The notes beneath the pieces are model-generated. The model was not told the DNA's origin, ran no database searches, and saw only the letters and a list, made by a program, of their open reading frames with translations. Below are positions 13,559-27,623 of a DNA stretch of 35,566 nt, piece after piece (position 1 is the first letter of the stretch; the number at the start of each line of letters is the position of its first letter). This DNA is from Eubacteriales bacterium (GTDB lineage: Bacteria > Bacillota > Clostridia > Oscillospirales > Oscillospiraceae): NCBI GenBank assembly GCA_030536515.1, contig JAUNPV010000018.1, positions 1 to 35,566 of the forward strand, given 5' to 3'. The position numbers were made by a program, and so were the translations under genes.

Positions 13559-13806
13559 ATACCTTCCCCCGGGGGGAAGGTGGCCGAGCGCAAGCGAGGT
13601 CGGATGAGGGATGGCGTGCACCTGGATTCATTGAATAGCGAAGAAGTAAGAAGTGTGGTATCGGCTTCGCCGATGATTTGAATAAGTGGCGAAGCCACGC
13701 CTCAACTCTTCACTATTACTTCTTCACTAACTTTCAGATATCGCCATCCCTCATCCGTCACAGTCTGCTACGCAGCCTGCGACACCTTCCCCCCGGGGGA
13801 AGGTAT
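13559..13806. repeat. MITE-like inverted-repeat element in the hyp operon
   Basis: Terminal inverted repeats of about 24 bases (ATACCTTCCCCC plus GGGGGGAAGGTG) occur at 13559-13582 and, inverted, at 13783-13806. Each is itself a palindrome. Just inside are matching inverted segments, CGGATGAGGGATGGCG (13601-13616) and CGCCATCCCTCATCCG (13742-13757). The centre has small hairpins (ATCGGCTTCGCCGAT; GTGGCGAAGCCAC) and an inverted pair rich in GAAGAAGTAA. The whole folds into one long branched stem. It occupies the 328-base gap between hypA and DUF5692. A partial relative lies at the window's end (35520-35566). Confidence 0.85.
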
Positions 13807-13879
13807 TTCTCTGGCATCCGCCTTATTCAAAAAAATGGGGAACATTCCCACAAATTACAAAAAGAAAAGAGGAAAATCT

Positions 13880-14923: not shown

Positions 14924-15007
14924 CCGGGTTACCTCCGTTTTTCTTTCGCTTCGTCATAAATTCGAAACAACTGGATGATATGCTGGAAGAAAACGGAGGT
15001 ATTCAGA

Positions 15008-15232
15008 ATGCTGGAACTGCTTTTGACTCTTTTCTTCATCTGGCTGCTGTTCAAGGGAATCGGACTGGCCTTTCGGGTGGCCTGGGGGACGGCCAAGATT
15101 GCGGCCTCCATCCTGTTCACCCTGGCCATCCCGCTGCTCATTGTGTGCCTGGTGTTTGCAGGCGGTGTGCTGCTGCTCCTGCCCCTGGCGCTGGTGGGCA
15201 TTGCCTTCGGACTTTTGAAGGCCTGTTGTTAA
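15008..15232 (+). CDS. Small membrane protein, function unknown
   Basis: A 74-residue protein made almost wholly of hydrophobic sequence, with one segment near 2-20 and a long one near 28-68 that may be two short helices. It ends KACC. A good ribosome-binding site, GGAGG (14995-14999), precedes ATG 15008. The gene is followed within 10 bases by a strong terminator hairpin. I do not recognise a family. It could be a small phage-shock or stress membrane peptide, but nothing here proves it. Confidence 0.6.
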   Translation: MLELLLTLFFIWLLFKGIGLAFRVAWGTAKIAASILFTLAIPLLIVCLVFAGGVLLLLPLALVGIAFGLLKACC

Positions 15233-15241
15233 GAATCATAA

Positions 15242-15502
15242 GAATCCCCCACCGGCGGTGGGGGATTCTTCAGGGCGTCGAAAAAGCCTCGCAGAGTTTG
15301 CCGCCGCAGCGGCAAATAAATTCTAAATCATTTTCGGCCGGGGCGTGTACCTGGACGAAAATACATCTCAGACTGCAAGTGTGGAATTTGTACGCCATAG
15401 GCGTACAAATTATGCACGCAGCAGGCTGCATCCCTTCTGTCGGAAAGCCCCGAAGGGGTTTTTCGACAGGCTGGAATCCCCCACCGGCGGTGGGGGATTC
15501 TT
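15242..15502 (+). repeat. Multi-hairpin element, short copy 1, with duplicated terminator hairpins
   Basis: The core (15271-15473, 203 bp) has imperfect terminal inverted repeats (GTCGAAAAAGCC near the left end; TTTTTCGACAG near the right). It is the short form of the element at 20637 and 27264, lacking two internal hairpin modules of about 45 and 63 bases. It is bracketed by a 29-bp direct repeat (15242-15270 and 15474-15502), which is a hairpin with arms GAATCCCCCACC and GGTGGGGGATTC plus TT. The left hairpin follows the small membrane protein gene. The right one keeps the T-rich tail (TTCTTGTGGTTT), so the pair looks like one terminator split and duplicated by insertion. Confidence 0.88.
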
Positions 15503-15523
15503 GTGGTTTCGGACGGTGCGCAG

Positions 15524-16360
15524 CTATACGGCCTCTATCCAGGAAAGCAGCTTATCCAGAGCCTGGCAGGCTGCCCGGGATTCCAGGAACATTCCGGCAC
15601 TGTAGCCGGAATGGGTGTTTTGGCGGTCGGCCACCTCATACAGCTCGGCGGACAGCCCCAGGGATTGGGCCTTTCGGAAAAACCGGTCTGCCATGGAAAA
15701 ATCAATCAGCCCGTCGTGCCGACTGTGAATCAGAAGCATGGGTATGCCGGTGTTCTCCATCACCGCCAGCGGCTCGGCCAGGGACCGGTCATAGCCCTTG
15801 GCAAAAAGCTGGTTCAGAAGGATTTGCACGGTTTTGGTTACGCCGGTCCGGAAGGCATAGGGGCCTGCAACCCCGATGAATCCGGCGATTTTGTCGGCCC
15901 GGACGTGATACTTGGCCTGGACCGCCCGGTCATAGCACAGAATCGAGGCCAGATGGGCTCCCGCAGAGGGGCCGGTCACAATCACCCTGCCGGTGTCCAC
16001 CCCGGCATCGTGGAGATAGTCCATGGCCCGGTTGAACCCGGCGCAGACATCCTCTATCTGGCAGGGGTACTTGTGCTTTGGGGACAGGCGGTAGCCCAGG
16101 GAGATGCAGTGGAAGCCGGCCTGGGCGAAGCACTGGCCCACAAAGGAAAAAATTCCGGGGTCCCCGGCGTTCCAGCCGCCGCCGTGAATCCAGACGACCA
16201 CCTTGCCGCTTTCGGCGCAGGAGGGGGCAAAGTGCAGAAAATACTGGTTTTTCTCAGGCCCAAAGGACACGGCTGTGGGATGGACCGTTTTCTTCACCTT
16301 GGCCATTTTCCAGTATAGGGAAGGATAGCTGAAGGCTTCTGTCCAATAGTCCTTGTTCAT
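15524..16360 (-). CDS. Alpha/beta hydrolase (acetyl-esterase/lipase-like)
   Basis: A 278-residue serine hydrolase. The oxyanion-hole motif HGGGW is at 59-63, the nucleophile elbow GPSAGA has S132, and the acid is D216 or D220 (SRHDGLID). H250 (NTHSGY) is the likely catalytic histidine, giving a complete Ser-Asp-His triad of the HSL/acetyl-esterase type. There is no signal peptide, so it acts in the cytoplasm. Its start (16360) overlaps the stop of the upstream PAP2 gene as ATGA, and AGGAG precedes it, so translation is coupled. It is the last gene of a four-gene minus-strand operon for lipid or glycolipid chemistry, where it may deacylate a lipid or sugar ester. The true substrate is unknown. 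Confidence 0.85.
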   Translation of the reverse strand: MNKDYWTEAFSYPSLYWKMAKVKKTVHPTAVSFGPEKNQYFLHFAPSCAESGKVVVWIHGGGWNAGDPGIFSFVGQCFAQAGFHCISLGYRLSPKHKYPCQIEDVCAGFNRAMDYLHDAGVDTGRVIVTGPSAGAHLASILCYDRAVQAKYHVRADKIAGFIGVAGPYAFRTGVTKTVQILLNQLFAKGYDRSLAEPLAVMENTGIPMLLIHSRHDGLIDFSMADRFFRKAQSLGLSAELYEVADRQNTHSGYSAGMFLESRAACQALDKLLSWIEAV

Positions 16361-17028
16361 CGGTTTTTCTCTCCTGTCTTGACATAGGCAAAATAATAGG
16401 CAATCAGGCACACCGGGATGGCGGCCAGCAGGTCCAGGACGGAGTGCTGGCGGAGGAACACCGTGGAAATGCTGATGAGAAAGCCGGTGATGCCGAAGGC
16501 CCACCGCCAGCCGACAGTGGACAGGCCCCGGGCGTTCCAGGCCCCCAGCACCACCGCCACGGAGCCGATGACATGGATGGAGGGGCAGACGTTGGTGTTG
16601 GTGTCGAACTGGTAAAAATGGGCCAGAAACCGGGTGAACAGATTGTCCCGGGCAAATTCCGCCGGACGCAGCTGCTGGCAGTTGGGAAAGAGAAGGTAAA
16701 CCAGCACGGCGATGGAGTAGGAAATGATGATGAATTTTTCCATCTTCACAAAGGCAGGCACGTCATAAAGCAGGGTGTACAGATGAATCCCCACCAGAAA
16801 GACGAACCAGAACAGGTACGGAATCAGGAAATATTCCATGAGGGGAATATAGTCATCCAGAGCGCAGTGGATGGGGAAGTAGCTGTCCCGGACAAAAATC
16901 CGCTCCACGGCCAGAAAGGCCAGGCCGTACACCGGCCAGAACAGCAGATAGGTAAGGTGCCGGAACTGGGGCTCCCGCAGCCGCCCCAGGCGGAAGGCGC
17001 GGTAATCAACCATATTTTCTCTGGTCAC
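16357..17028 (-). CDS. PAP2-superfamily membrane phosphatase/transferase
   Basis: A 223-residue multipass protein with about six membrane segments. PAP2 motifs are present in AUR1-like form: NCQQLRP (116-122) for motif 1, CPSIHV (148-153) instead of the usual PSGH, and FLRQHSVLD with H195 and D199 for motif 3. This variant is typical of the inositolphosphotransferase-like PAP2 branch, which cleaves or exchanges lipid phosphates at the membrane. I choose the GTG start at 17028 because GGAGG lies 8 bases upstream. ATG 17013 is an alternative. The gene overlaps the end of the glycosyltransferase gene by 23 bases, so the two are co-translated. Confidence 0.82.
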   Translation of the reverse strand: MTRENMVDYRAFRLGRLREPQFRHLTYLLFWPVYGLAFLAVERIFVRDSYFPIHCALDDYIPLMEYFLIPYLFWFVFLVGIHLYTLLYDVPAFVKMEKFIIISYSIAVLVYLLFPNCQQLRPAEFARDNLFTRFLAHFYQFDTNTNVCPSIHVIGSVAVVLGAWNARGLSTVGWRWAFGITGFLISISTVFLRQHSVLDLLAAIPVCLIAYYFAYVKTGEKNR

Positions 17029-18145
17029 AGACTCTGCCTCCCTGCAGCTGCCGGAATATTTCCATGGCTCCGTCCCGGCAGTCCCAGCGTTTCAGCGCCT
17101 GCTCCATGGCGGCCAGCTCCCCGGGGGCGGCCAGCAGGCGCAGGCTCTCCCGGGCCAGGGCAGCCGGGGACCCGGCGGTGACGGCGGCGCCCAGCTTCAA
17201 AAAGAAGTCCTGGTTGTAGCCCTCGCAGCCGCCCACGGCGCTGACAAAGGCCATGGGGACCCCCTTCACGGCGGCCTCGGTGATGCTGATGCCGCCGGGC
17301 TTGGTCACGTACAGGTCGGCGGCGTCTAAGTACAGGGACATCTGGTTGGTGTAGCCGATGATGTGGATTTGAGGATTTTTGCCGAAGTGAAGCTCCATTT
17401 TGGTGTGGAGCAGCCGGTTGGTGCCGCAGATGACGGACACCTCCGTGTCCTCGGGCAGGCCCCGGGCGATGCGGCTGAGAATCCGGACCATGGGCCCGCA
17501 GCCCATGGAGCCGCAGGCAATCAGCAGATGCTTGTGGCCTGCATCGATGCCCAGCAGCCGCTTGGCATCGGCCCGGTCCGTCCGGCGGAAGAAGGCCCGG
17601 CGGACGGGAATGCCGGACACCCGGAGGGTGCTCTCGGGAATGCCCCGGCCGGTAAAGCAGTCTTTTAGGGTCTGGGCCGGAATGAAGCAGCGGTCCGCAA
17701 GGCCGATTTCTGCCCCGGGGTGGCAGGTGTAGTCGGTGGAAACGTAGGCGGTGCCCACCTCCAGGGGGTGGTGGGCCTTCATCTGATCGACCATGATGGC
17801 GGAAAACACGTGGGTGGAGATCACCGTGTCAAACCGGTGGATGCCGATGTAGGCATAGAGCCGGTCGGCCCCGGTGGCCAGCAGCCGGTACACAGGCTGC
17901 TTTTGACCCCAAAAGCCGCTGTGGCCCTCGCTGAAGCCGTAGCCAAAGCGGAACAGCCAGGGCAGATACCGGTACATCCAGCTGTGGCCCCGGGAGATGA
18001 ACCGGGCAAACCGGGGGGAGACAAAGTCCAGAGAATCCCGAATCTGGCAGGGCACCCCCTGGGCGGTGAAGTATTCCGCAATGGCCTGGGCGCAGGAGTT
18101 ATGCCCTTGCCCCGTACTGCAGCTTAATATCAAAACCTTGTTCAT
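17006..18145 (-). CDS. MGDG-synthase/UgtP-like glycosyltransferase (GT28)
   Basis: A 379-residue peripheral-membrane glycosyltransferase. It opens with VLILSCSTGQGHNSCAQAI (about 4-22), the glycine-rich acceptor-site motif of monogalactosyldiacylglycerol synthase and UgtP. The C-terminal GT-B domain shows ICGTN, then TKPGGISITEAAVKGVP, the nucleotide-sugar-binding region typical of GT28 enzymes such as MurG. Family members transfer glucose or galactose from UDP-sugar to diacylglycerol. The start at 18145 has AAAGGAA 7 bases upstream and lies inside the 3' end of the acyltransferase gene (47-base overlap). It probably builds a membrane glycolipid that the flanking acyltransferase, PAP2 protein and hydrolase modify. 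Confidence 0.88.
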   Translation of the reverse strand: MNKVLILSCSTGQGHNSCAQAIAEYFTAQGVPCQIRDSLDFVSPRFARFISRGHSWMYRYLPWLFRFGYGFSEGHSGFWGQKQPVYRLLATGADRLYAYIGIHRFDTVISTHVFSAIMVDQMKAHHPLEVGTAYVSTDYTCHPGAEIGLADRCFIPAQTLKDCFTGRGIPESTLRVSGIPVRRAFFRRTDRADAKRLLGIDAGHKHLLIACGSMGCGPMVRILSRIARGLPEDTEVSVICGTNRLLHTKMELHFGKNPQIHIIGYTNQMSLYLDAADLYVTKPGGISITEAAVKGVPMAFVSAVGGCEGYNQDFFLKLGAAVTAGSPAALARESLRLLAAPGELAAMEQALKRWDCRDGAMEIFRQLQGGRVCDQRKYG

Positions 18146-18632
18146 ATTGTGTTCCTTTTCCAGAATGTTCTTTGGCCTGGAGCCGGGCGAGAAGCCGGGC
18201 CAGCTTGGGCCGGTTGTAGCGCTGAATCATACAGAAGGGGAGATTGCCCAGGGCGTACAGCGCCCACAAAACCCAGCCGCCGGCGCCCTTCCACAGCTTG
18301 ATGCAGCCCCAGCCCAGAATGCACAGCAGCCCATGGGTCAGCTCCGCCACGCAGGTCTCCCGCAGCATGGCCTCCACCTGCCGGGCGGAGGTGGCCTTTG
18401 GCAGGGCCTTGGAGGGAATCAGCCTGGGGAGAATGCGGCTCATGTCCGGCAGGCGGTCCTTCCATTTCCGGATGCCCAGGGCTTCGTAGATTTTCCCGCC
18501 GCGCTCAAAGGGAAAGGCCCGGAAGGGGGCTTCCCCATAGGAAAACCAGTCCTTGGGCAGGAGCCTGCCCAGGAAAAACGCCGCAAGACCAACGGCGGCC
18601 AGGTAAATCAGACATTTGATAAGAGGATGCAT
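18099..18632 (-). CDS. CrtO-like glycosyl-diaponeurosporenoate acyltransferase-family protein
   Basis: A 177-residue membrane protein. One hydrophobic segment lies at 4-24 and another stretch at about 100-130. The segment FPFERGGKIYEALGIRKWKDRLPD (about 41-64) matches the signature of the family annotated as glycosyl-4,4'-diaponeurosporenoate acyltransferase (staphyloxanthin CrtO). In Staphylococcus CrtO adds a fatty acyl chain to a glycosylated carotenoid. No carotenoid genes are visible here, and in Clostridia this family commonly sits next to glycosyltransferases. The substrate may therefore be the glycolipid made by the downstream enzyme. It is the first gene of the operon, and the next gene overlaps it by 47 bases. 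Confidence 0.75.
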   Translation of the reverse strand: MHPLIKCLIYLAAVGLAAFFLGRLLPKDWFSYGEAPFRAFPFERGGKIYEALGIRKWKDRLPDMSRILPRLIPSKALPKATSARQVEAMLRETCVAELTHGLLCILGWGCIKLWKGAGGWVLWALYALGNLPFCMIQRYNRPKLARLLARLQAKEHSGKGTQYEQGFDIKLQYGARA

Positions 18633-18662
18633 AGGCGCTTCCGTCCTTTCTCTTTTTCCCAG

Positions 18663-18694
18663 AGTATACGCCGCAACTTACAACTGTTTGTCAA
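18663..18694 (-). promoter_or_regulatory. Weak candidate promoter of the lipid operon
   Basis: On the minus strand, TTGACA (18694-18689) and TATACT (18668-18663) are separated by 20 bases, longer than the ideal 17. It lies 30 bases upstream of the acyltransferase ATG. The AT-rich block it occupies is shared with the divergent response-regulator promoter. Confidence 0.35.
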
Positions 18695-18736
18695 CTGACT
18701 TTCAATTATTGTTGAATTTCCATTTCCGCCAGGATA

Positions 18737-18745
18737 TGGTATAAT
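18737..18745 (+). promoter_or_regulatory. Extended -10 promoter of the two-component operon
   Basis: TGGTATAAT is a perfect extended -10 (TGnTATAAT). No good -35 lies 16-18 bases upstream, which is usual for extended -10 promoters. The start of transcription would fall near 18752, just before a structured repeat. Confidence 0.65.
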
Positions 18746-18758
18746 ACAAGATACGAGA

Positions 18759-18856
18759 TGCTTATCGATTGAAGCGAGCCAATCCGTTTGCCATGCTTTC
18801 CTGTGGAAAGCATGGGCGGCGGCCTGAGGTCAGGCCGCCCTACAGCCTTTGTTTAC
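18759..18856 (+). repeat. Structured leader repeat in the 5' region of the two-component operon
   Basis: It begins TGCTTATCGATTG, contains CAATCCGTTTGCC, a hairpin with arms CATGCTTTCC/GGAAAGCATG, a second hairpin with arms GGCGGCCTGA/TCAGGCCGCC, and ends near CTACAGCCTTTG. The same modules in the same order and in the same orientation relative to the gene occur upstream of the yesL-eis operon (26985 to 26836, minus strand). In both places the repeat begins about 10-13 bases after the -10 box. This copy lacks the closing right arm. Confidence 0.7.
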
Positions 18857-18877
18857 TATATTATAAGGAGGGAGCCT

Positions 18878-19549
18878 GTGTTCAAGATACTGCTTGCCGA
18901 GGACGACGGGGAGCTGCGCCAGCTGTTTGCCCGGGTGCTGACCAAAAACGGCTACAGCGTGGTGGGGGTGGAAAACGGGAAGGAGGCCCTGGACGTGCTG
19001 GACCGGGACTATATCGACCTCATTATCTCCGATATTATGATGCCGGTGATGGACGGCTATGAGCTGGTGCGGTCCCTGCGGGAGGCCAAGCTGCAAATTC
19101 CCGTGATGATGATTACCGCCCGGGATGCCTTCGACGATATGCGCCTGGGCTTTCTCTCCGGCACCGACGACTATATGGTCAAGCCCGTCAATGTCAACGA
19201 AATGGTGCTGCGGGTGGGGGCTCTGCTGCGGCGGGCCCAGATGATCAACGACCGGCGGCAGGTGGTGGGGAGCACGGAGCTGAGCATGGACTCCATGACC
19301 GTCACCACCGGGGAGGGGACCTTCTCCCTGCCGCAGAAGGAATTTATGCTGCTTTACAAGCTGCTGTCCTTCCCGGGGCGGATTTTCACCCGCCAGCAGC
19401 TGATGGACGACATCTGGGGCTACGATGCCGACACCGACACCCACACGGTGGACGTTCACATCGGCCGCCTCCGGGAGCGGTTCCGCAGCAGCCCGGACTT
19501 TCAGATTGTCACCATCCGGGGCGTGGGCTTTAAGGCGGTGAAGAAATGA
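18878..19549 (+). CDS. OmpR-family response regulator
   Basis: A 223-residue transcription factor. The receiver domain (1-115) has the acidic pocket EDD (8-10), the phosphoacceptor D52 (SDIMMPVMDG), T80 and K102 (VKP). The C-terminal winged helix (about 130-223) shows LPQKEFMLLYKLLSFPGRIFTR, with the trans-activation loop and recognition helix, then VDVHIGRLRERF and a final hairpin, IRGVGFKAV. I use GTG 18878, preceded by AAGGAGGGAG at the right spacing. A longer frame to 18788 would translate the repeat. It overlaps the histidine kinase start by 4 bases (ATGA), so the pair is co-translated. The signal and regulon cannot be read from the sequence. Confidence 0.93.
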   Translation: MFKILLAEDDGELRQLFARVLTKNGYSVVGVENGKEALDVLDRDYIDLIISDIMMPVMDGYELVRSLREAKLQIPVMMITARDAFDDMRLGFLSGTDDYMVKPVNVNEMVLRVGALLRRAQMINDRRQVVGSTELSMDSMTVTTGEGTFSLPQKEFMLLYKLLSFPGRIFTRQQLMDDIWGYDADTDTHTVDVHIGRLRERFRSSPDFQIVTIRGVGFKAVKK

Positions 19550-20571
19550 AAAAGAAATCCAAGGGGCAGATGCGGCTGTACCTGTATTTTACATCCGTGA
19601 TTTTCCTGGCGCTGGCCGTCACCTCCGGGGTGTCGGGGCTGCTGTCCTGGCTGCTGCCTATGGACATTCCGCCGGTGCTGGTTACCATTATTTTCTTCGA
19701 CATTCTGGGCATGGGGGTGGCGGTGGTCATCAGCCACAATGTCCTGCGGCCCATGACCAGGCTGTCCCAGGCCATGGAGCAGGTGGCCCGGGGGGACTTC
19801 AAGGTCCGGCTGGAGGAGAAAAGCAAGCTGGGGGAGATTCAGGAGCTTTATGACAATTTTAACCTGATGGTCACGGAGCTGTCCGCCACGGAGGTCCTCC
19901 AGTCGGACTTTGTCTCCAACGTGTCCCACGAGTTCAAAACCCCCATCAACGCCATCGAGGGCTACACCATGCTTTTGCAGGAGGACTGCACCCTGTCCCA
20001 GGAGCAGGGGGAGTACGCAAGAAAGATTCTGTTCAACACCAAGCGGCTGTCGGGGCTGGTGAGCAACATCCTGCTGCTGTCGAAAATCGACAACCAGAGC
20101 ATCCCCGCCAGGCAGGAGCAGTTCCGGCTGGACGAGCAGATTCGCCAGGCCATTGTGTTTCTGGAGCCAAAGTGGTCGGAAAAGGAGATTGACCTGGAGG
20201 CGGAGCTGGAGAAGGTCACCTTCTCGGGCAACGAGCAGCTGCTGCTGCACGTGTGGCTGAACCTCATCGACAACGCCGTGAAATTCAGCCCGCCGGAGGG
20301 CCAGGTCGAGATTCGGCTGAAGGCCTCGGAGCAGAATGTGCTGGTGTCGGTCCGGGACAGCGGCCCGGGCATCTCCCCCGGGGAGCAGAAGCGGATTTTC
20401 GACAAATTCTACCAGGCGGACAGCTCCCACAAAAACGAGGGCAACGGCCTGGGCCTGGCCCTGGTCCGCCAGGTGGTGACCCTCCACCGGGGCACCATCG
20501 ACGTGGAAAACGTCCTGGGCGGCTGCAAGTTCACGGTGGTCCTGCCCATCCTCCCGCCGGAGCAGGAATAG
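19546..20571 (+). CDS. Membrane sensor histidine kinase
   Basis: A 341-residue kinase. Two membrane helices (about 12-37 and 43-64) are joined by an extremely short outside loop, so it probably senses something within or at the membrane, as intramembrane-sensing kinases do. HAMP is at about 64-118. HisKA has the phosphorylated H128 (NVSHEFKTP). The catalytic domain has the N-box NLIDNAVKF (239-247), DSGPGI (271-276) and a G2 box, GNGLGLALV. It partners the response regulator it overlaps. Short-loop OmpR-type systems in Firmicutes often govern envelope or peptide-antibiotic stress. Here the divergent lipid operon is a possible target, by proximity only. Confidence 0.9.
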   Translation: MKKKSKGQMRLYLYFTSVIFLALAVTSGVSGLLSWLLPMDIPPVLVTIIFFDILGMGVAVVISHNVLRPMTRLSQAMEQVARGDFKVRLEEKSKLGEIQELYDNFNLMVTELSATEVLQSDFVSNVSHEFKTPINAIEGYTMLLQEDCTLSQEQGEYARKILFNTKRLSGLVSNILLLSKIDNQSIPARQEQFRLDEQIRQAIVFLEPKWSEKEIDLEAELEKVTFSGNEQLLLHVWLNLIDNAVKFSPPEGQVEIRLKASEQNVLVSVRDSGPGISPGEQKRIFDKFYQADSSHKNEGNGLGLALVRQVVTLHRGTIDVENVLGGCKFTVVLPILPPEQE

Positions 20572-20608
20572 AGTGCCTAACGACTGATAATTTTTATATG
20601 TCTTTCAC

Positions 20609-20973
20609 AAAGCCCCGGGCCGTCAGGCCCGGGGCTCATGGCGTCAAAAAAGCCTCGCAGAGTTTGCCGCCGCAGCGGCAAATAAATTCTAAATCATTTT
20701 CGGCCGGGGCGCACCCCAGGGTGGCCTCTCTTGCCCCTTCGGGGCAATTCACCTTCTGTACCTGGACGAAAATACTTCTCAGACTGCAAGTGCGGTGCGT
20801 CGCGCAGCGAATCCAAATCAAACATGATTGCCGGTGGCAATCATACAATAATTTTTGGAATTTGTACGCCATAGGCGTACAAATTATGCACGCAGCAGGC
20901 TGCAACCCCTTGTCGGAAAGCCCCGCAGGGGTTTTTCGACAGTCTAAGCCCCGGGCCTGACGGCCCGGGGCTT
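20609..20973 (+). repeat. Multi-hairpin element, full copy 2, with flanking hairpins in inverted orientation
   Basis: The core is 20637-20945 (309 bp) and is nearly identical to the copy at 27264. Internal hairpins include TTGCCGC/GCGGCAA, TTGCCCC/GGGGCAA, ATGATTGCC/GGCAATCAT, TTTGTACGCC/GGCGTACAAA and a terminal GTCGGAAAGCCCC/GGGGTTTTTCGAC. It is bracketed by palindromes with arms AGCCCCGGGCC/GGCCCGGGGCT at 20611-20636 and 20947-20972. The loop is GTCA on the left and TGAC on the right, so here the two flanks are inverted copies rather than direct ones. The right hairpin keeps the T-rich tail (CTTTGCATATTTTG), consistent with a split terminator of the kinase gene. No gene lies in this spacer. 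Confidence 0.88.
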
Positions 20974-21035
20974 TGCATATTTTGCACACAGCGGCACAAT
21001 GCACAAGTAGATGCAAGAAAAGCCAACGGGGGAAG

Positions 21036-21064
21036 ATGACATTTGAACAAAAAGAGAATACAAT
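21036..21064 (+). promoter_or_regulatory. Promoter of the LplB-type transporter operon
   Basis: ATGACA (21036-21041), a 17-base spacer and TACAAT (21059-21064), each one mismatch from consensus. It lies about 65 bases upstream of the permease start. Confidence 0.5.
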
Positions 21065-21129
21065 ATACATAAAGCAAGGGGCCAAACACCGGCCCGGTTC
21101 GTCAATTTGAATAGATACGGAAAGAGACG

Positions 21130-22116
21130 GTGAGCAAAATGAATCCCAATGCGGAAAAGACGCCGAGACTGAGCCTACACCAGTCCAGCCGATTCTCCAA
21201 ATATAAAAAGACCCTGGCGCTGCTGACCATGGTGGCCCCGGTCACCATCTGGCTGATTCTGCGCAGCTATCTGCCCATGGCGGGCATGGTCCTGGCCTTC
21301 AAGAACTACAAGGTCTACCCCAAGGACCCCACCTTCTGGAACAACCTGATTCACAGCAAGTGGGTGGGCTTCAAGAACTTTGAGTTCCTGTTCAAGACCG
21401 ATGCGGCCATGCTGGCCGTCCGCAACACGGTGCTGTATAACATTGTGTTCATCATTCTGGGCGTCATCATTCCCGTGGCCCTGGCCATTATGATGAACGA
21501 GCTGACCAAGAAGCTCGCCGCCAAGACCTACCAGACCCTGATGTTCTTCCCCTACTTCCTCAGCTGGGTTGTTGTCAGCTACTTCCTCAACGCCTTCATC
21601 GACGCTCAGTACGGTATGCTCCCGGCCATGCAGAAGGCGGCCGGAGAGATTCCCTACTCCTGGTACACCAGCACCAAGCCCTGGCCCTACATCATCGTTT
21701 TTGCAAACCTCTGGAAAAACACCGGCTACACCGTCATGCTGTACCTGGCCGCCATCACCGGCATCGACACCACCCAGTATGAGGCCTCGGCCATCGACGG
21801 CGCAACCAAGTGGCAGCAGATATGGAACATCACCATTCCGAACCTGCGCACCATGATTGCCATTTTGTTCATCCTCAACGTGGGCAAGATTTTCAACTCC
21901 GACTTTGGCCTGTTCTACAACGTTCCCATGCAGAACGGCGCCACCTTCCCGGTGACCCAGGTTATCGATACCTACATCTACCGGTCCTTCATGACCACCC
22001 ACGACGTGGGCATGAATACCGCCGCAGGCCTATTGCAGAATGTTCTTGGCTTCATCTGCATCATCACTGCAAACTCCGTCGTCAAAAAAATCGACGAAGA
22101 CAGCAGTATGTTCTAA
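21130..22116 (+). CDS. ABC carbohydrate transporter permease, LplB type
   Basis: A 328-residue inner-membrane permease with six predicted helices. The ABC-permease EAA loop is present as YEASAIDGATKWQQIWNITIP (near 217-237), which contacts the ATPase. The N-terminal sequence PVTIWLILRSYLPMAGMVLAFKNYK is typical of LplB-like permeases of the CUT1-related family that import oligosaccharides or polysaccharide fragments. The start is uncertain: GTG 21130 or ATG 21139, both near a GGAAAGAGACGG stretch. It is followed 12 bases later by the partner permease, then the binding protein. No ATP-binding subunit is encoded nearby, so a shared MsmX-like ATPase is expected. Confidence 0.9.
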   Translation: MSKMNPNAEKTPRLSLHQSSRFSKYKKTLALLTMVAPVTIWLILRSYLPMAGMVLAFKNYKVYPKDPTFWNNLIHSKWVGFKNFEFLFKTDAAMLAVRNTVLYNIVFIILGVIIPVALAIMMNELTKKLAAKTYQTLMFFPYFLSWVVVSYFLNAFIDAQYGMLPAMQKAAGEIPYSWYTSTKPWPYIIVFANLWKNTGYTVMLYLAAITGIDTTQYEASAIDGATKWQQIWNITIPNLRTMIAILFILNVGKIFNSDFGLFYNVPMQNGATFPVTQVIDTYIYRSFMTTHDVGMNTAAGLLQNVLGFICIITANSVVKKIDEDSSMF

Positions 22117-22128
22117 GGAGGTGCTGAC

Positions 22129-23043
22129 ATGGCTAAGAAAAATCACCGTTTGAATTCCATCAGTGCAGGGACCGAGGCTGTATTCCACATCATCATCGCC
22201 CTGTTTGCCCTGTGCTGCATTATCCCCTTCATCTTCGTTATCATCATTTCCTTCACGGATGAAGCCTCCCTGCGGGAAATTGGCTACTCCTTTGTTCCCC
22301 AGGCCTGGAGCACCTACACCTACCAGTTCGCCTTTGACAAGCTGCCCCAGATTTGGCGCTCCTTCTTCAACTCCATCGTCATCACCGTGGTGGGCACCGT
22401 GCTGAGCACCTTCATGTGCGCCCTGTACTCCTACGCCCTGTACCGGCCGGACTTCAGGTTCCGCAACTTCTTCAACTACCTCAGCTTCTTCACCATGATT
22501 TTCCCCGGCGCGCTGATTCCCACCTACATCATCTCCAAGCAGGTTCTGGGCCTCAGCGAGAACTACGCCGCCCTGATTGTGCCGCTGCTGGTTTCCCCCT
22601 TCAACATCATCGTCATGCGGACCTTCTTTAAAAGCTCCTGCCCCATGGAGCTGATTGAGGCGGCCACCATCGACGGGGCAGGGGAGTACAGCATCCTGTT
22701 CCGGATTGTTGCCCCCATTGCAAAGCCCGGCATCGCCACCATCGCATTGCTGAACTCTCTGGCCTACTGGAACGACTGGTTCCAGTCCATGCTCTACATC
22801 CGTCAGAATAAAATTCTACAGCCCCTGCAGGCGCTGCTGATGGAGCTGCAAAACAATGTGGAATATCTGAACCGTATGGCCGGTCAGATGGGCACCGCCG
22901 CCGTGATGGAGTCCATGAAAGCGCCCACCCAGTCCCTGCGCATGGCTCTGGTGGTGATGATTGTCCTGCCGATTGCCTGCGCCTACCCCTTCTTCCAGCG
23001 CTACATCGTCGCCGGCCTGGCCGTCGGCTCGGTGAAGGGCTAA
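22129..23043 (+). CDS. ABC carbohydrate transporter permease, LplC type
   Basis: A 304-residue partner permease with six helices. Its EAA loop is ELIEAATIDGAGEYSILFRI (about 182-201), and the C-terminus, FFQRYIVAGLAVGSVKG, is the usual ending for LplC/MalG-type subunits. AAGGAGG precedes ATG 22129. It forms a heterodimer with the LplB-type protein and receives substrate from the lipoprotein encoded next. Confidence 0.92.
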   Translation: MAKKNHRLNSISAGTEAVFHIIIALFALCCIIPFIFVIIISFTDEASLREIGYSFVPQAWSTYTYQFAFDKLPQIWRSFFNSIVITVVGTVLSTFMCALYSYALYRPDFRFRNFFNYLSFFTMIFPGALIPTYIISKQVLGLSENYAALIVPLLVSPFNIIVMRTFFKSSCPMELIEAATIDGAGEYSILFRIVAPIAKPGIATIALLNSLAYWNDWFQSMLYIRQNKILQPLQALLMELQNNVEYLNRMAGQMGTAAVMESMKAPTQSLRMALVVMIVLPIACAYPFFQRYIVAGLAVGSVKG

Positions 23044-23130
23044 GCCCGTTCCGACAGAACATACTTTTGGCTCAAACAGCACGTCGCTGTTAAGCAATAA
23101 AAAACATTTTATGATAATGGAGGAAAAAAG

Positions 23131-24738
23131 ATGAAAAAGTTCTTCGCACTGCTGCTGGCCCTTACTATGGTCCTCAGCCTGGCCGCCTGCGGCAGCAAGC
23201 CCGCAGAGCCCACCGCCGCTCCCACCGAAGCCCCCGCTGTTGATGCGCCCGCCACGGAAGCTCCCGCTACCGAGGCACCCGCTCCCGCTGAGCTGGAGCC
23301 CGTGACCCTGAAGATGTGGTTCCACGGCTCTACTGTGACCCCCGAGGCCTCCGCAAAGGTTATGGAAACTCTGAATCCCATCCTGCAGGAAAAGCTGAAC
23401 GTTACGCTGGAGCCCATCTGGGGCACCTGGGGTGACTTCGACACCTCCGTTACCACCGCTCTGGCTGGCGGCGACGATGTGGACATCTACTTCACCTGCA
23501 ACTGGTCCGGCAACGAGTACAACAGCTACGCCCGTGACGGCTACTACGTCAAGCTGGACGACCTGCTGGACACCTGCGCTCCCGAGCTGAAGGCTGCTAT
23601 CCCCGAGGGTATCTGGGACTGCGCCAAGACCAACGGCGCTGAGGGCATGGGCATCTACGCTGTCCCCGGCCTGAAGGACACCGCTACCCAGAACTGCTGG
23701 GACGTCAACGGCACCCTGCTGGCCGAGTGCGGCTACAATGTTGACGAGGTCTGCGCTGCCGGCCTGGACTACTTCTCCGCTGAGTTCGAGGAGATGCTGG
23801 CTGCCGCCAAGGCCAAAAAGGGCAACGACTTCTACCCCCTGCTGATTGAGCCCGCCGTCCTGGAGCGTATGGTTACCCATTCCGCTATCGTGACCGGCGA
23901 CCTGTCCGGCGCCAACGTCCTGTCCTACTACTACGATGCCGAGCATCCCGCTACCGACTTGGGCAACGCCATTGTCAACAAGTATGGCACCGACGAGTTC
24001 GCCGCCTTCGCCGCCAAGACCTATGAGTATGCGCAGAAGGGCTACATCTCCCCCAGCTGCCAGAACCCCAACACCGCCAACGACTACCGTACCGCCTGCC
24101 AGAGCTCCGGCGAGTACCTGTTCGGCACCCAGTCCTACGCCTTCGGCTGTGAGCTGGATTTCTCCAATGCTCGTGGCATTGATGTCCGCATGGTCCCCGA
24201 GACTGCTGCTTACATGGACTGCACCTCCGGCCAGGGCGCTATGATGGCCATTTCCGCCACCTCCAAGAACCCCGAGCGGGCCCTGATGTTCCTGAATCTG
24301 CTGAACACCGATTCCGAGATTATGACTCTGGTCAACTACGGTGTTGAGGGCTACACCTACAACAAGAACGACGACGGCACCATCACCTTCGTTGACGAGG
24401 TCCGTGCTACCTACTCTCCCTGGACCAACGGTGTCGGCAACGTCCGTATCCTGCCCCCTACCGCTCAACAGGGCACCGATTTCTGGACCCGCTTTGCTGA
24501 CTACTACAATGCAGCTGAGACTCTGCCCTACGGCGGCTTCGTCTTCGATAACTCCGTGTGCGCCACCGAGAGCGCTGCCATTGCCAATGTCTACGCTGAG
24601 TACGCCTTCAACCTGATGTCCGGCGCTGTCAACCCCGATGAGGTTCTGCCCGAATTCCTGGAGAAGCTGAACGAGGCTGGCATGGAGACCCTGGTTAACG
24701 CTGCCAACGAGCAGATGACCGCTTACCTGGCTGGCTAA
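23131..24738 (+). CDS. Extracellular solute-binding lipoprotein of the Lpl-type importer
   Basis: A 535-residue lipoprotein. A type II signal peptide has the lipobox LAAC (17-20) with acylated C20. A low-complexity linker follows, rich in Ala, Pro, Thr and Glu (about 24-55, repeated PATEAPA), then a large binding domain (VTLKMWFHG onwards) of the family 1/DUF3502-like type. It captures the oligosaccharide outside the cell for the two permeases upstream. The 87-base gap from the permease has no clear promoter. The ribosome-binding site is GGAGG before ATG 23131. Codon use shifts toward GCT, CGT, GGT and CTG relative to its neighbours, a sign of strong expression. A terminator follows 36 bases after the stop. 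Confidence 0.93.
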   Translation: MKKFFALLLALTMVLSLAACGSKPAEPTAAPTEAPAVDAPATEAPATEAPAPAELEPVTLKMWFHGSTVTPEASAKVMETLNPILQEKLNVTLEPIWGTWGDFDTSVTTALAGGDDVDIYFTCNWSGNEYNSYARDGYYVKLDDLLDTCAPELKAAIPEGIWDCAKTNGAEGMGIYAVPGLKDTATQNCWDVNGTLLAECGYNVDEVCAAGLDYFSAEFEEMLAAAKAKKGNDFYPLLIEPAVLERMVTHSAIVTGDLSGANVLSYYYDAEHPATDLGNAIVNKYGTDEFAAFAAKTYEYAQKGYISPSCQNPNTANDYRTACQSSGEYLFGTQSYAFGCELDFSNARGIDVRMVPETAAYMDCTSGQGAMMAISATSKNPERALMFLNLLNTDSEIMTLVNYGVEGYTYNKNDDGTITFVDEVRATYSPWTNGVGNVRILPPTAQQGTDFWTRFADYYNAAETLPYGGFVFDNSVCATESAAIANVYAEYAFNLMSGAVNPDEVLPEFLEKLNEAGMETLVNAANEQMTAYLAG

Positions 24739-24774
24739 TCCCCAGCTGACAAAAGCAGATACCTAACCAACAGA

Positions 24775-24804
24775 TGCCCCGCACCGAAAGGTGCGGGGCA
24801 TTTT
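24775..24804 (+). terminator. Terminator of the transporter operon
   Basis: TGCCCCGCACC and GGTGCGGGGCA form an 11-bp stem around a GAAA tetraloop, followed by TTTT. Confidence 0.9.
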
Positions 24805-24805
24805 C

Positions 24806-24954
24806 GCAATCCTGTTTGCGTAGGGACAGCCCTTGCGGCTGTCCGTGCGGTAAGACCGTAGGGCCCGGCATCCTTGACGGGCCGTTCGGAAAGAAAACGG
24901 GAGGGGAAAAAATCTTGTCACGCAAAGGGAGGCTGCCCCGGCGAAATAAGACAA
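24806..24954. other. Intergenic repeat-like segment
   Basis: A GC-rich stretch with nested palindromes: GGACAGCC/GGCTGTCC (24824-24844), then GGGCCCGGCATCC and ACGGGCCG blocks. It resembles the dispersed palindromic repeats elsewhere in the window, but no second copy is visible here. No gene. Confidence 0.45.
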
Positions 24955-24982
24955 ACCAGGGAGGGCCGAAGCCCTCCCTGGT
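24955..24982 (-). terminator. Terminator of the yesL-eis operon
   Basis: A perfect 12-bp stem with arms ACCAGGGAGGGC and GCCCTCCCTGGT around a CGAA loop (TTCG on the minus strand), followed on the minus strand by TTTGTCTTATTT. It lies 10 bases after the acetyltransferase stop. Confidence 0.88.
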
Positions 24983-24992
24983 CCATTGCGTA

Positions 24993-26177
24993 TTAGAAAT
25001 AATCCACCAGCATCAGCGGCTTCCGGTAGAAAACCTTCCTGAGGTCGGGGTTGTCCCGGTGCAGGGTCAGGCCGCCCATCCACCGGCTGCTGTCTGCAAA
25101 GTCCCACACCCCGGCAATCAGAGCGGAGAAGGTGGCAATATCCAGGGAAAGGTCTGCGTCCGCCCCGGTCCCCTCCACGCTCACCGCCTTGCCGTTTTCG
25201 AAGGACACGGCGAAGCGGCGGTTATTCTGGGCCACCTGCCGGTCCCGGACCTCCAGGGTCACGGCCCCGGAGCCAGCGTATCTGGCCTTTTGAAGAACGC
25301 TCTGCACATTCACCACCCGGACCATGCCCCCGGGCTGGAGGGCCCACAGGGCGGCCCCCAGGGACCACTCGGGGCAAAGATACTGCATGGCGGTGCAGCT
25401 GGGCAGCACGAATTTGACGTACTTGTGGTCGGCGGACAGACTCTTGAACAGGTTCATCAGGCCGTAAAACCCCTCCCGGTCGGTGAAGAACAGCCAGGTG
25501 CACACCAGATTCCGCCCGTCCCGGTGGTCGGTCTTGACGAAGGTGGTGTAGGCCTTGGGGGTGCCGTCGGCGCTGAAATAGACGTAGGTGAACTCCTGGG
25601 AGGCGGCGGGGTCGCACCGCTTGGTGAAGTCGTAGTCCTTCTCCTGGTGAATGACCATCATGTTGAACTGCTCCTCCCAGACTCTGTCGATGGCCACAAT
25701 CTCCTTGCGGAAGGGGTCCGCCGCCTCGGCCAGGCGAAAATGGCCCGCAACCTCCGGCGGGTCCAGCAGCTGCAGGTCCACGGTGGCCAGCAGCTTCTGC
25801 ACGCAGCTTTCATAGCCGAATTTCCGATAATACCCGGTGGAAAAAGGGTAGAGATAGGAAAAATCATAGCCATTTTCAAACATATCCGGCAGAGCCGCCT
25901 GGAAGCAGCCCCGGATGCCGCCCCGGCGGCGGAACTGGGGCAGGGTGGCCACGCCGCCGATGCCGCCCATTTTGCAGTGGTTCCCGTCGAACTGGATGAG
26001 AAAATCCGTGACGGAAAAGGTGCTCATCATCTGGCTGTCGTCGGTGAACGCGGCCCAGCTGCTGACATTGCCGCTTTCCTCCCGGGGCGTGCCCCGCTTC
26101 AAGGGCTGCTCAAAGGCGATGGCGAACAGCTCGTCGATTCTCGCCTGATCCTGCGGTGTTGCTTTCCGAACGATCAT
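24993..26177 (-). CDS. Eis-like GNAT N-acetyltransferase with SCP2-type C-terminal domain
   Basis: A 394-residue cytoplasmic acetyltransferase. The first GNAT domain has the acetyl-CoA-binding region GGIGGVATLPQFRRRGGIRG (about 71-90). A second GNAT-like domain follows, then a C-terminal SCP2/sterol-carrier-like domain ending FYRKPLMLVDYF, with the carboxylate placed as in Eis proteins. Mycobacterial Eis acetylates aminoglycosides and other amines, but most clostridial homologues have unknown substrates. ATG 26177 follows AGGAGGAGAG and overlaps the stop of the yesL-like gene (ATGA), so the two are translationally coupled. Confidence 0.87.
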   Translation of the reverse strand: MIVRKATPQDQARIDELFAIAFEQPLKRGTPREESGNVSSWAAFTDDSQMMSTFSVTDFLIQFDGNHCKMGGIGGVATLPQFRRRGGIRGCFQAALPDMFENGYDFSYLYPFSTGYYRKFGYESCVQKLLATVDLQLLDPPEVAGHFRLAEAADPFRKEIVAIDRVWEEQFNMMVIHQEKDYDFTKRCDPAASQEFTYVYFSADGTPKAYTTFVKTDHRDGRNLVCTWLFFTDREGFYGLMNLFKSLSADHKYVKFVLPSCTAMQYLCPEWSLGAALWALQPGGMVRVVNVQSVLQKARYAGSGAVTLEVRDRQVAQNNRRFAVSFENGKAVSVEGTGADADLSLDIATFSALIAGVWDFADSSRWMGGLTLHRDNPDLRKVFYRKPLMLVDYF

Positions 26178-26806
26178 GGGCTCTCCTCCTTTGTAAAATA
26201 TGGCTCGAATATTTTCTTCAGCAGCAATGCGTTTAAGTAGGCGATGGCAGAGAAATACAGAAACACCCACAAAAAGGCGGTTTCCAAAAACAGCACCAGG
26301 TCAAAAAGCAGAACTGCAAAGGGAAACACATTCAAAAGGGCCACCACCATGGACCGGGGCAGATACCCCAGGCTGAGGAAAATGGCGTTTTTCAGGGTCT
26401 GGCGGCCGGTGTTGCGGAACTGGCTCAGCAGCGGGAACACATACCCCCCGGCCAGCACCAGCACCACCAGCAGCACCACCGGCGGGAAGTACAGATAGTG
26501 GGCCGGGCCGCTCATCCGGTAAAAGAGCACGCTGTCAAAGCCCACGCAGGCCCCCACCGCCACAAGCAGCAGCCACAGGCCGGTGGCCTGGCCGAAATTG
26601 GCCCGGAAGGCCCGGAAATACCCCCGCAGCAGCCCGCCCTCCCGGCCGGAGGCCATTTGAAAGCAGACGGTGTACAGGGCCGTCAGGGCAGCGCCGACGG
26701 TGAAAACCGGCAGGCAGGTCAGAAGAAAAACAAAGTTCAGCACAACCAAATCTCCCAGCCGGCTCATGGCGGTCATAAATTTGGAATCCGGGGACAAAAA
26801 TTTCAT
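26174..26806 (-). CDS. DUF624/YesL-family membrane protein
   Basis: A 210-residue protein with five or six hydrophobic helices. The N-terminus, KFMTAMSRLGDLVVLNFVF, then LLTCLPVFTVGAALTALY, is the DUF624 (YesL) signature. YesL-family proteins are repeatedly encoded beside Lpl/YtcQ-type oligosaccharide importers, but their biochemical role is not known. The importer genes lie just across the convergent terminators, so a functional link is plausible. The start 26806 is chosen because AGGAGG precedes it. The open frame extends further up, through a structured repeat. Confidence 0.85.
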   Translation of the reverse strand: MKFLSPDSKFMTAMSRLGDLVVLNFVFLLTCLPVFTVGAALTALYTVCFQMASGREGGLLRGYFRAFRANFGQATGLWLLLVAVGACVGFDSVLFYRMSGPAHYLYFPPVVLLVVLVLAGGYVFPLLSQFRNTGRQTLKNAIFLSLGYLPRSMVVALLNVFPFAVLLFDLVLFLETAFLWVFLYFSAIAYLNALLLKKIFEPYFTKEESP

Positions 26807-26835
26807 GGGGCCCTCCTGAAATGAATTTTTCATTG

Positions 26836-26985
26836 TGCTTATCGGCTTTAAGCAGCAAAGACTGTAGGGCGGCCTGACCTCAGGCCGCCGTCCATGTTTT
26901 CTGATGGAAAACATGGGCAAACGGATTGCCACGCCAGGAAAGAGGACTTATCTCGCAATGACAAGCTGAGTTAAGCCGATAAGCA
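26836..26985 (-). repeat. Structured leader repeat upstream of yesL-eis, closed by a 15-bp stem
   Basis: Read on the minus strand, TGCTTATCGGCTTAA (26985-26971) pairs with TTAAAGCCGATAAGCA (26851-26836). Inside are CAATCCGTTTGCC, a hairpin with arms CATGTTTTC/GAAAACATG, and a hairpin with arms GGCGGCCTGA/TCAGGCCGCC, then CTACAGTCTTTG. The same modules are found upstream of the response regulator (18759-18856). It sits between the promoter (26996-27024) and the yesL start. Confidence 0.8.
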
Positions 26986-26995
26986 TTTTTTCTTT

Positions 26996-27024
26996 ATCAT
27001 AGCATAAAAAGGGGAAAAATGCCA
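26996..27024 (-). promoter_or_regulatory. Candidate promoter of yesL-eis
   Basis: On the minus strand, TGCTATGAT is an extended -10 (TATGAT at 27001-26996) with a weak TGGCAT -35 (27024-27019) at 17 bases. Transcription would start about 5 bases before the structured leader. Confidence 0.5.
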
Positions 27025-27235
27025 CAGGATTATCGAGTAATATTCAACAGTGTAGGGAAAACGGCCAATGGCGAACATTTTACCTTGGTTTTTCGCTGGA
27101 ATCCAACCGGGATACCGGCCCTTCCGGACCTCCCAGAGCCTCTCAGCCGCCCCCGGACCGAAAAAACCCGCCGGAGGGGGCCGCTTTTTCGTAAATCCGA
27201 CGAAACAAAAAACAGTTGTTTTTGGACAATGCAAA
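27025..27235. other. Non-coding spacer
   Basis: Several overlapping short frames occur on both strands, but none has a ribosome-binding site or recognisable protein character. A GC-rich imperfect palindrome flanked by CGAAAAA and TTTTTCG lies near 27158-27191. Nothing else is seen. Confidence 0.45.
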
Positions 27236-27600
27236 GGCCCACCGACGAATCGGTGGGCCGCAGGGCATCGACAAAGCCTCGCAGAGTTTGCCGCCGCAGC
27301 GGCAAATAAATTCTAAATCATTTTCGGCCGGGGCGCACCCCAGGGTGGCCTCTCTTGCCCCTTCGGGGCAATTCACCTTCTGTACCTGGACGAAAATACA
27401 TCTCAGACTGCAAGTGCGGTGCGTCGCGCAGCGAATCCAAATCAAATATGATTGCCGGTGGCAATCATACAATACTTTTTGGAATTTGTACGCCATAGGC
27501 GTACAAATTATGCACGCAGCAGGCTGCATCCCTTCTGTCGGAAAGCCCCGAAGGGGGTTTTCGACAGACTGCGGCCCACCGACGAATCGGTGGGCCGCAG
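27236..27600. repeat. Multi-hairpin element, full copy 3, with duplicated flanking hairpins
   Basis: The core is 27264-27572 (309 bp) and collinear with copy 2, with only scattered substitutions. It is bracketed by a 28-bp direct repeat (27236-27263 and 27573-27600), a hairpin with arms GGCCCACCGA/TCGGTGGGCC, loop CGAA, plus GCAG. The adjacent gene (27624-28457) is on the minus strand, and only the hairpin distal to it is followed by a T-rich tail on that strand (TTTGCATTG). The element therefore lies in the opposite orientation relative to its host terminator compared with copies 1 and 2. Confidence 0.9.
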
Positions 27601-27623
27601 CCTGGCAAAAGCCCAGAAGGGCG

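What the first reader, a model, noticed from the sequence alone, without database searches (positions are those of the whole stretch)
15242..27600. Multi-hairpin element in three copies, each bracketed by two copies of a different palindrome
Near-identical cores (15271-15473, 20637-20945, 27264-27572) are each flanked on both sides by one 26-29 bp hairpin. The hairpin is GAATCCCCCACC-armed at copy 1, AGCCCCGGGCC-armed at copy 2 and GGCCCACCGA-armed at copy 3. Because flanks match within a locus but differ between loci, they behave like target-site duplications of a whole hairpin. In each case the hairpin farther from the upstream gene keeps the T-rich tail, so the target looks like a Rho-independent terminator. 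Duplicating a complete 26-29 bp terminator hairpin is unlike ordinary transposon duplications. The core encodes no protein, so it would be mobilised in trans or spread as RNA. An alternative is that the flanks belong to the element and are homogenised by gene conversion.
Basis: partly seen in the sequence, partly recalled or inferred. Interest (0 to 1): 0.85.

Follow-up and report, generated by a model that had tools for sequence, protein, structure and literature searches.

The report
Mobile DNA that duplicates terminator hairpins
Short protein-less mobile DNAs in a gut bacterium, most likely moved by an IS1182-type transposase, land on the hairpins that end genes and usually leave a full copy of the hairpin on each side, which suggests that the enzyme reads DNA shape rather than sequence.

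Summary
The three copies are non-autonomous elements (MITEs, about 200-310 bp, ends CAG...CTG). The host genome holds 32 full-length relatives; 22 are young with both ends readable, and 15 of these 22 sit between two copies of one hairpin that differs from locus to locus. Its single IS1182-family transposase gene has matching ends and is itself bracketed by a duplicated hairpin. Of 92 insertions analysed (own genome, congeners, 14 chosen IS copies), 52 have a direct repeat of 8-35 bp, centred on a palindrome within 1 nt in 50; 50 of 52 pass a palindrome test against 12 of 1040 control windows. One IS duplicated a 64-bp palindrome. So the duplication follows the palindrome, not a fixed stagger. 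Best explanation: attack at the two 5' feet of an extruded cruciform, then gap filling, drawn as a hypothetical pathway in a 2017 IS1272 paper; IS1272 itself deletes its hairpin. A new variant of IS1182 hairpin targeting. Unexpectedly, the core is a strongly covarying fold without an Rfam match, found in 12 of 85 genera sampled in the order.

The parts
15242..15270 (.). left copy of duplicated hairpin, locus 1 (GAATCCCCCACCGGCGGTGGGGGATTCTT)
15271..15473 (+). MITE copy 1 (203 bp, CAG...CTG), short form
   Evidence: covariance-model hit 222.6 bits (this copy is one of the 49 in the model)
15474..15502 (.). right copy of duplicated hairpin, locus 1
   Evidence: 29 of 29 identical to the left copy
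20610..20636 (.). left hairpin, locus 2 (loop GTCA at 20622-20625)
20637..20945 (+). MITE copy 2 (long form with two extra internal segments)
20946..20972 (.). right hairpin, locus 2 (same stem; loop TGAC at 20958-20961, i.e. inverted)
27236..27263 (.). left hairpin, locus 3
27261..27572 (+). MITE copy 3 (long form); its outer 3 nt (CAG) are shared with the direct repeat
27573..27600 (.). right hairpin, locus 3
   Evidence: 28 of 28 identical to the left copy

Best explanation
The elements are MITEs mobilised in trans by an IS1182-family DDE transposase. The transposase takes as target a palindrome able to form a hairpin or cruciform, in practice mostly terminator-like hairpins near gene 3' ends. 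[quoted passage not shown] In an extruded cruciform these two feet lie together at the four-way junction whatever the stem length, so a fixed pair of active sites can reach both. Gap repair then copies the whole palindrome on both sides. The outer A- and T-runs stay at the far sides, which is why the T-tract is kept only by the hairpin farther from the upstream gene. Shown by sequence: the duplication, its dyad centring, its variable length, the matching transposase and ends. Inferred: the cruciform intermediate, the order of strand transfer, action in trans.
For: Own genome: 15 of 22 young copies with both ends readable lie between two copies of one hairpin, a different one at each locus (scored by eye). 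Sample from public MAG contigs (partly the same genomes as the congener sample): 112 motif hits, 58 with both ends callable, of which 34 same hairpin on both sides, 5 two different hairpins, 14 one, 5 none; random positions 14 of 1090. Symmetry: of 92 sites 52 have a direct repeat of at least 8 bp, found without regard to palindromes (11 of 22 own, 29 of 56 congener, 12 of 14 IS copies chosen because searches had already shown the pattern); length 8-35, median 26; centre within 1 nt of the palindrome centre in 50 of 52; score >=7 with that centring in 50 of 52 against 12 of 1040 controls. A congener IS duplicated a 64-bp palindrome (L107). Terminator-like targets: 40 of 52 sites have at least 4 T in the 8 nt after the repeat, against 12% of 2040 control positions; an open frame of at least 90 codons ends within 150 nt on at least one side in 74 of 80 copies against 238 of 561 random positions. 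Mobiliser: the only DDE_Tnp_1_6 match of the genome scores 307.8 bits against the NCBIfam IS1182 model (cut-off 270), has matching TIRs and a duplicated hairpin. Wider: 8 of 9 IS1182 copies in a single-contig genome and 3 of 3 in another are bracketed by locus-specific hairpin duplications; so are 2 of 5 plasmid elements examined. Single hairpin at sites without the element: two congeners at the L172 locus.
Against: In the own genome 7 of 22 young copies do not show the simple pattern: L039 and L046 have 8- and 10-bp repeats inside a palindrome, L036 6 bp with no hairpin, L037 about 4 bp at the foot of a hairpin, L031 and L032 a hairpin on one side only, L040 two different hairpins. Of 9 congener IS copies with both ends called, 4 have the same palindrome on both sides and 5 do not. 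In one search, 24 of 58 copies lack a matching pair. At the L195 locus an unfilled congener already carries both hairpins plus a third. The own transposase copy has an in-frame stop. Transposase hits are found in only 34 of 136 genus genomes, so many MITE copies are probably relics. Many genomes are fragmented assemblies (the named ones mostly MAGs), so some mismatched flanks may be assembly errors. No same-species empty site was available. The correlation of duplication length with a computed palindrome length was weak (Spearman 0.22, p 0.12). One of the 52 (L413) had its end miscalled (9 bp, 21 bp). Nothing biochemical was tested.
Confidence: 0.85

Rival explanations
1. The hairpins belong to the element and are homogenised between the two sides by gene conversion.
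For: The inverted loop at copy 2 and the small loop differences at several loci fit conversion or hairpin inversion after insertion; at the L170 locus the element is in opposite orientation in different congeners, so the flanking palindromes may act as inverted repeats.
Against: The hairpins are unrelated between loci while the cores are alike; at the L172 locus two congeners without the element have one hairpin; IS1182 elements on two plasmids show the same pattern.
Confidence: 0.05
2. IS1272-like hairpin replacement: insertion among several adjacent hairpins, one of which is lost, so that two pre-existing hairpins end up as flanks.
For: L195 locus: one unfilled congener (G093) has left, middle and right hairpins and the filled ones lack the middle one; another (G057) keeps the right hairpin and a truncated left one. 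IS1272 deletes its target stem-loop (PMC4923244 passages; PMC5678879 abstract and sections). It could explain part of the copies with two different hairpins.
Against: It does not produce identical hairpins on both sides, the majority outcome (34 of 58; 15 of 22 in the own genome).
Confidence: 0.1
3. Insertion with a fixed long stagger (24-29 bp, as recalled for IS1202-type elements) that happens to fall on terminators.
For: The median duplication is 26 bp.
Against: Observed duplications run from 8 to 35 bp and to 64 bp and stay centred on the dyad; the transposase belongs to IS1182.
Confidence: 0.03
4. RNA-mediated spread (retroelement or group IIC intron-like insertion behind terminators).
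For: The core folds with strong covariation and lands at terminator-like sites.
Against: TIRs shared with a DDE transposase and full direct duplications argue for DNA transposition. No reverse transcriptase search was run.
Confidence: 0.02

Closest known systems
IS1272 and TnSha1 (IS1182 family, staphylococci)
   Same: Same transposase family; target is a stem-loop, often a terminator, without sequence consensus.
   Different: IS1272 removes all or part of the stem-loop and makes no target duplication; here the whole palindrome is usually kept and duplicated. The 2017 paper drew this outcome as pathway b of its Fig. 13; the parts I read (abstract, Discussion part 1 of 2, one Results section) give no example.
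IS1182 family in general
   Same: NCBIfam IS1182 model above cut-off; palindrome targeting by some members is stated in a review that both IS1272 papers cite (the review itself not seen).
   Different: Of 40 phylum copies examined, 25 have other ends (for example GGGCTGTCTC or AGTCTGTCTAAAAA) and none of these showed a hairpin duplication, though the ends of several are uncertain. The behaviour goes with CAGnnTGTnGA-type ends.
MITEs with a conserved fold (ERIC, BOX and the like; recalled, not tested)
   Same: Short, multi-copy, intergenic, no ORF, folded.
   Different: IS1182 ends and palindrome duplication; no Rfam match.
CRISPR spacer acquisition (Cas1-Cas2)
   Same: Integration at a palindromic repeat duplicates the whole repeat (PMC4940900, passages).
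   Different: Fixed locus and repeat, different enzyme; here many different terminator-like palindromes serve.

Membership tests
IS1182 family (the mobiliser) | Transposase of the IS1182 family | tested here: met
   NF033551 307.8 bits against cut-off 270; PF13751, PF01609 and PF05598
IS1182 family (the mobiliser) | Intact transposase in the window's own genome | tested here: not met
   single copy with one in-frame TAG; hits without internal stops exist in congeners (L103, L104, L107, L108)
IS1182 family (the mobiliser) | Catalytic DDE residues in place | not tested
   profile match only
MITE of an IS1182 element | Ends match the TIRs of an autonomous element in the same genome | tested here: met
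   CAGnCTGTCGAAAAA-type ends in both; the left CAG of the own IS reads CTG
MITE of an IS1182 element | No transposase reading frame, multiple dispersed copies | tested here: met
   about 203-312 bp; 32 full-length copies
MITE of an IS1182 element | Target site duplication | tested here: met
MITE of an IS1182 element | Mobilised in trans by that transposase | not testable with these tools
   needs a transposition assay; weak support: 27 of 27 transposase-bearing genus genomes match the MITE query against 53 of 74 others (tallied by hand; chance), confounded by completeness and by internal modules that occur alone
IS1272-type inverted-repeat replacement | Target stem-loop deleted, no duplication | tested here: not met
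   stem-loop retained and duplicated in 15 of 22 own copies and 34 of 58 MAG copies; one locus is compatible with replacement
IS1202-type element with fixed long duplication (recalled) | Near-constant 24-29 bp duplication | tested here: not met
   8 to 35 bp and 64 bp
Known Rfam RNA family | Match above gathering score | tested here: not met
   0 matches in window 15000-28000; only sub-threshold hits (6; 10)

The most novel reading that the evidence does not exclude
The element is a mobile structured RNA, or a folded single strand, of an undescribed family that IS1182 ends carry from terminator to terminator. The transposase integrates at cruciform junctions, so palindromes of about 10 to 64 bp are duplicated exactly, and each insertion adds the folded module to a gene's 3' end without losing the terminator. 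The fold might even take part in choosing or opening the target hairpin.
Probability: 0.25. Interest if true: 0.85.

Novelty: new variant of a known kind. Interest (0 to 1): 0.64.

Why it matters
Most transposition systems leave a duplication of characteristic length set by the spacing of the active sites (PMC4940900, passage). Here the duplication tracks the palindrome from 8 to 64 bp, which is natural evidence for strand transfer at the feet of a cruciform, a pathway drawn in 2017 without an example in the parts of that paper I read. The many natural sites make the idea directly testable and show how an element can sit at gene ends while keeping the terminator. The covarying core adds a folded family, absent from Rfam, spread over several families of one order.

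Tried and rejected
Group II intron or retroelement: not pursued once the TIRs and the DDE transposase were found; no reverse transcriptase search was run. IS1202-like fixed stagger: rejected by the range of duplication lengths. Phage collection: 4 records with 17-19% of the query, no full copy. 3'-UTR function by orientation: no bias; an open frame of at least 90 codons ends within 150 nt on the left only in 12, right only in 18, both in 44, neither in 6 of 80 copies (spurious antisense frames not removed). Strand of the fold: G.U 267 against A.C 12 is biased by having folded that strand as RNA; the fairer comparison gave energies -116.4 and -106.0 and G.U/A.C 53/37 against 43/40 in Watson-Crick-majority pairs, a weak preference only. 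L169 and L170 loci were not clean as empty sites. Plasmids: 1303 records match the transposase; 7 places were fetched and 5 examined: 2 show the duplication (L254, L256), L253 a weak hairpin on one side only, L258 a short repeat without hairpin, L252 no TIR found; L255 and L257 were not examined. Distant copies: of 20 fetched from other genera, 2 (L469, L472, both from one genome) showed a matching duplicated hairpin, so the folded core outlives or predates the TIR form. Phylum IS copies: of 5 in G156 two have the same hairpin on both sides, one had its ends miscalled, two have other ends and no hairpin pair.

Rows dropped before counts: 4 of 60 loci without a TIR pair (some of the other 56 pairs look miscalled but were kept), 41 hits with unclear ends, 12 at contig edges and 1 duplicate of 112, 40 of 92 sites without a direct repeat of at least 8 bp (W2, W3, L034, L038, L048 and L050 among them, although their hairpins match, because of edge or loop mismatches), and the L413 end miscalled, cores over 93% alike, of 104 elements only those of 185-216 bp and under 95% alike (49) went into the fold test.
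Full report
OBSERVATION. The three loci are as described. At copy 1 the element reads inward CAGGGCGTCGAAAAAGCC at the left and CAGCCTGTCGAAAAACCCC at the right, an imperfect terminal inverted repeat; the outermost bases differ at copy 2. Hairpins at copies 1 and 3 are identical on both sides (29 of 29, 28 of 28). At copy 2 the stem is identical but the four-base loop is inverted. Copy 1 lacks two internal segments present in copies 2 and 3.

COPIES IN THE SAME GENOME. The window lies in a 2.63-Mb genome in 48 contigs. A covariance model finds 32 full-length relatives above 130 bits (the model was built partly from such copies; of the other 24 of 56 rows two are weaker hits at 68 and 54 bits and the rest, below 39 bits, lie mostly on the opposite strand of the same copies). 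Twenty-two are young with both ends readable; one more (L047) is cut by a contig end. In 15 of the 22 both sides carry the same hairpin, different at each locus (W1-W3, L033-L035, L038, L041-L045, L048-L050, scored by eye, small loop or stem differences allowed). The other seven are L031 and L032 (hairpin on one side), L036 (6-bp repeat, no hairpin), L037 (about 4 bp at the foot of a hairpin), L039 (8-bp repeat inside a palindrome), L046 (10-bp apex of a longer palindrome) and L040 (two different hairpins). The left hairpin of L040 resembles the right hairpin of L047, as expected if two copies recombined or were misjoined in assembly. In the ten older full-length copies I saw no matching pair, but their ends were not called.

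RELATIVES. Of 60 loci fetched from congeners, 56 gave a TIR pair and 29 of these had a direct repeat of 20-35 bp. In a sample of public contigs, mostly Oscillospiraceae MAGs and among them Candidatus Faecousia (it overlaps the first sample in part), 58 of 112 motif hits had both ends callable: 34 same hairpin on both sides, 5 two different hairpins, 14 one, 5 none; random positions in the same contigs gave 14 of 1090.

THE DUPLICATION FOLLOWS THE PALINDROME. Direct repeats were called without regard to symmetry. Of 92 insertions analysed, 52 had a repeat of at least 8 bp: 11 of 22 own, 29 of 56 congener, and 12 of 14 IS copies that had been picked after searches showed the pattern. Lengths ran from 8 to 35 bp (median 26), and the centre of the repeat fell within 1 nt of the centre of the best palindrome in 50 of 52. 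With score at least 7 and this centring, 50 of 52 pass against 12 of 1040 random windows of the same lengths. One entry, L413, had its end miscalled (9 bp there, 21 bp). The repeat begins with A and ends with T in 35 of 52. One full-length IS duplicated a 64-bp palindrome exactly (L107). A fixed stagger cannot give this. I do not claim a correlation with computed stem length (Spearman 0.22, p 0.12); A/T-rich flanks probably lengthen the computed stem.

TARGETS LOOK LIKE TERMINATORS. At 40 of 52 sites at least 4 of the 8 nt after the repeat are T, against 12% of 2040 random positions; means are 4.4 T after and 4.3 A before, against 1.8 and 1.9. An open frame of at least 90 codons ends within 150 nt on at least one side in 74 of 80 copies, against 238 of 561 random positions. 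No RNA data were available.

THE MOBILISER. The genome has one match to the DDE_Tnp_1_6 domain. It passes the curated cut-off of NCBI's IS1182 model (307.8 against 270 bits), its ends match the MITE ends and it is itself bracketed by a 25-bp hairpin duplication. It carries one in-frame stop, so it is probably inactive; hits without internal stops occur in congeners. Transposase matches were found in 34 of 136 genus genomes. Among the 101 genomes, all 27 with a transposase also match the MITE query, against 53 of 74 without (tallied by hand; chance 6e-4; confounded by completeness and by internal modules that occur alone). Of 9 congener IS copies with both ends called, 4 have the same palindrome on both sides (L098, L101, L105, L107) and 5 do not (L099, L100, L104, L106, L115).

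BEYOND THE GENUS. Of 40 IS1182 copies of the phylum that I examined, 8 of 9 in a single-contig genome and 3 of 3 in another are bracketed by locus-specific hairpin duplications, and 2 more copies in a third genome have the same hairpin on both sides; 25 copies with other end sequences showed none, though several of their ends are uncertain. Of 5 plasmid elements examined, 2 (Enterococcus faecium, Rhizobium leguminosarum) show the duplication. The behaviour therefore seems to belong to one part of the family.

EMPTY SITES. At one locus filled in two congeners (G019, G057), two others (G047, G135; 73-75% identical) have the same two flanks, no element, and a single hairpin with a T-run. In the closer relatives G126 and G093 the left flank is followed by one hairpin and no element, but the right flank lies elsewhere, so these are not clean empty sites. 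At another locus (L195) the filled copies have two different hairpins; one unfilled congener already has both plus a third between them, and another keeps the right one and a truncated left one; this fits replacement of a middle hairpin. At a third locus the element lies in opposite orientations in different congeners. No same-species empty site was available.

MECHANISM. Shown: whole-palindrome duplication, dyad centring, variable length, matching transposase. Inferred: the palindrome is extruded as a cruciform (or lies as a hairpin on a single strand), the two 3' ends of the element are joined at the 5' feet of the stems, and repair copies the palindrome on both sides. The IS1272 paper (PMC5678879; abstract, Discussion part 1 of 2 and Results section 24 read) drew exactly this as pathway b and contrasted it with IS1272, which it proposes to attack the 3' feet and lose the stem-loop. 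IS1272/TnSha1 hairpin deletion without duplication is also in PMC4923244 (passages). PMC4940900 (passages) describes the formal parallel in CRISPR, where the palindromic repeat is duplicated, and states that most transposition systems give a duplication of characteristic length. Literature searches were made; in their listings (titles and starts of abstracts) I saw no report of whole-hairpin duplication, but the library holds open-licence papers only and ISfinder could not be consulted.

AN UNEXPECTED FOLD. Forty-nine diverse copies align to a structure of 50 pairs in which 96.3% of cells pair and 30 pairs have changes on both sides; 192 cells show double changes against 50 +/- 6.5 in shuffles (0 of 500 as high) and 12-49 in slid controls. 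Relatedness and a structure derived from the same alignment inflate such numbers; the slid controls keep relatedness. Rfam has no match. The preference for one strand is weak, and the orientation to neighbouring genes is unbiased. The model hits 20 of 147 genomes and 12 of 85 genera sampled in the order, in seven families, some of them weakly. Of 20 distant copies fetched only 2 show a matched hairpin pair, so the folded core is wider than the IS1182-ended form. Whether it acts as RNA, as single-stranded DNA in transposition, or both is open.

VERDICT. A real and well-supported phenomenon: MITEs with IS1182 ends that usually duplicate whole terminator-like palindromes. It is a new variant of known hairpin-targeting transposition, with an undescribed folded core as cargo.

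Noticed in passing
window 18791-18851 and 26856-26916: Inverted pair of another short repeat: a small hairpin next to the palindrome GGCGGCCTGAGGTCAGGCCGCC. Elsewhere in the genome (L062, L064, L067) a palindrome of this kind is split by a module that resembles one internal segment of the long MITE form.
   Followed up: partly
window 13556-13591, 13777-13807, 35514-35549: Three copies, in both orientations, of a palindrome like ACCTTCCCCCGGGGGGAAGGT; possibly a further small repeat family.
   Followed up: no
window 20712-20756 and about 27417-27479: Two internal segments of the long MITE form occur on their own in congeners (query about 60-119 and 150-217), and the first also in two phage contigs: modular or nested repeats.
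   Followed up: partly
window 20622-20625 and 20958-20961: The hairpin loop at copy 2 is inverted between the two sides, which suggests flipping or gene conversion of the palindrome after insertion.
   Followed up: partly
L170, L250, L251: The same insertion site holds the element in opposite orientations in different congeners, so the flanking palindromes may let it invert.
   Followed up: partly
L419-L430: IS1182 members with other ends show short repeats such as CTAG or CTACATAG at some copies, perhaps a short-palindrome version of the same target choice.
   Followed up: no
L106: Partial element ends and a full IS lie in tandem between two copies of one 37-bp palindrome, as if a compound or nested insertion had duplicated it once.
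   Followed up: no
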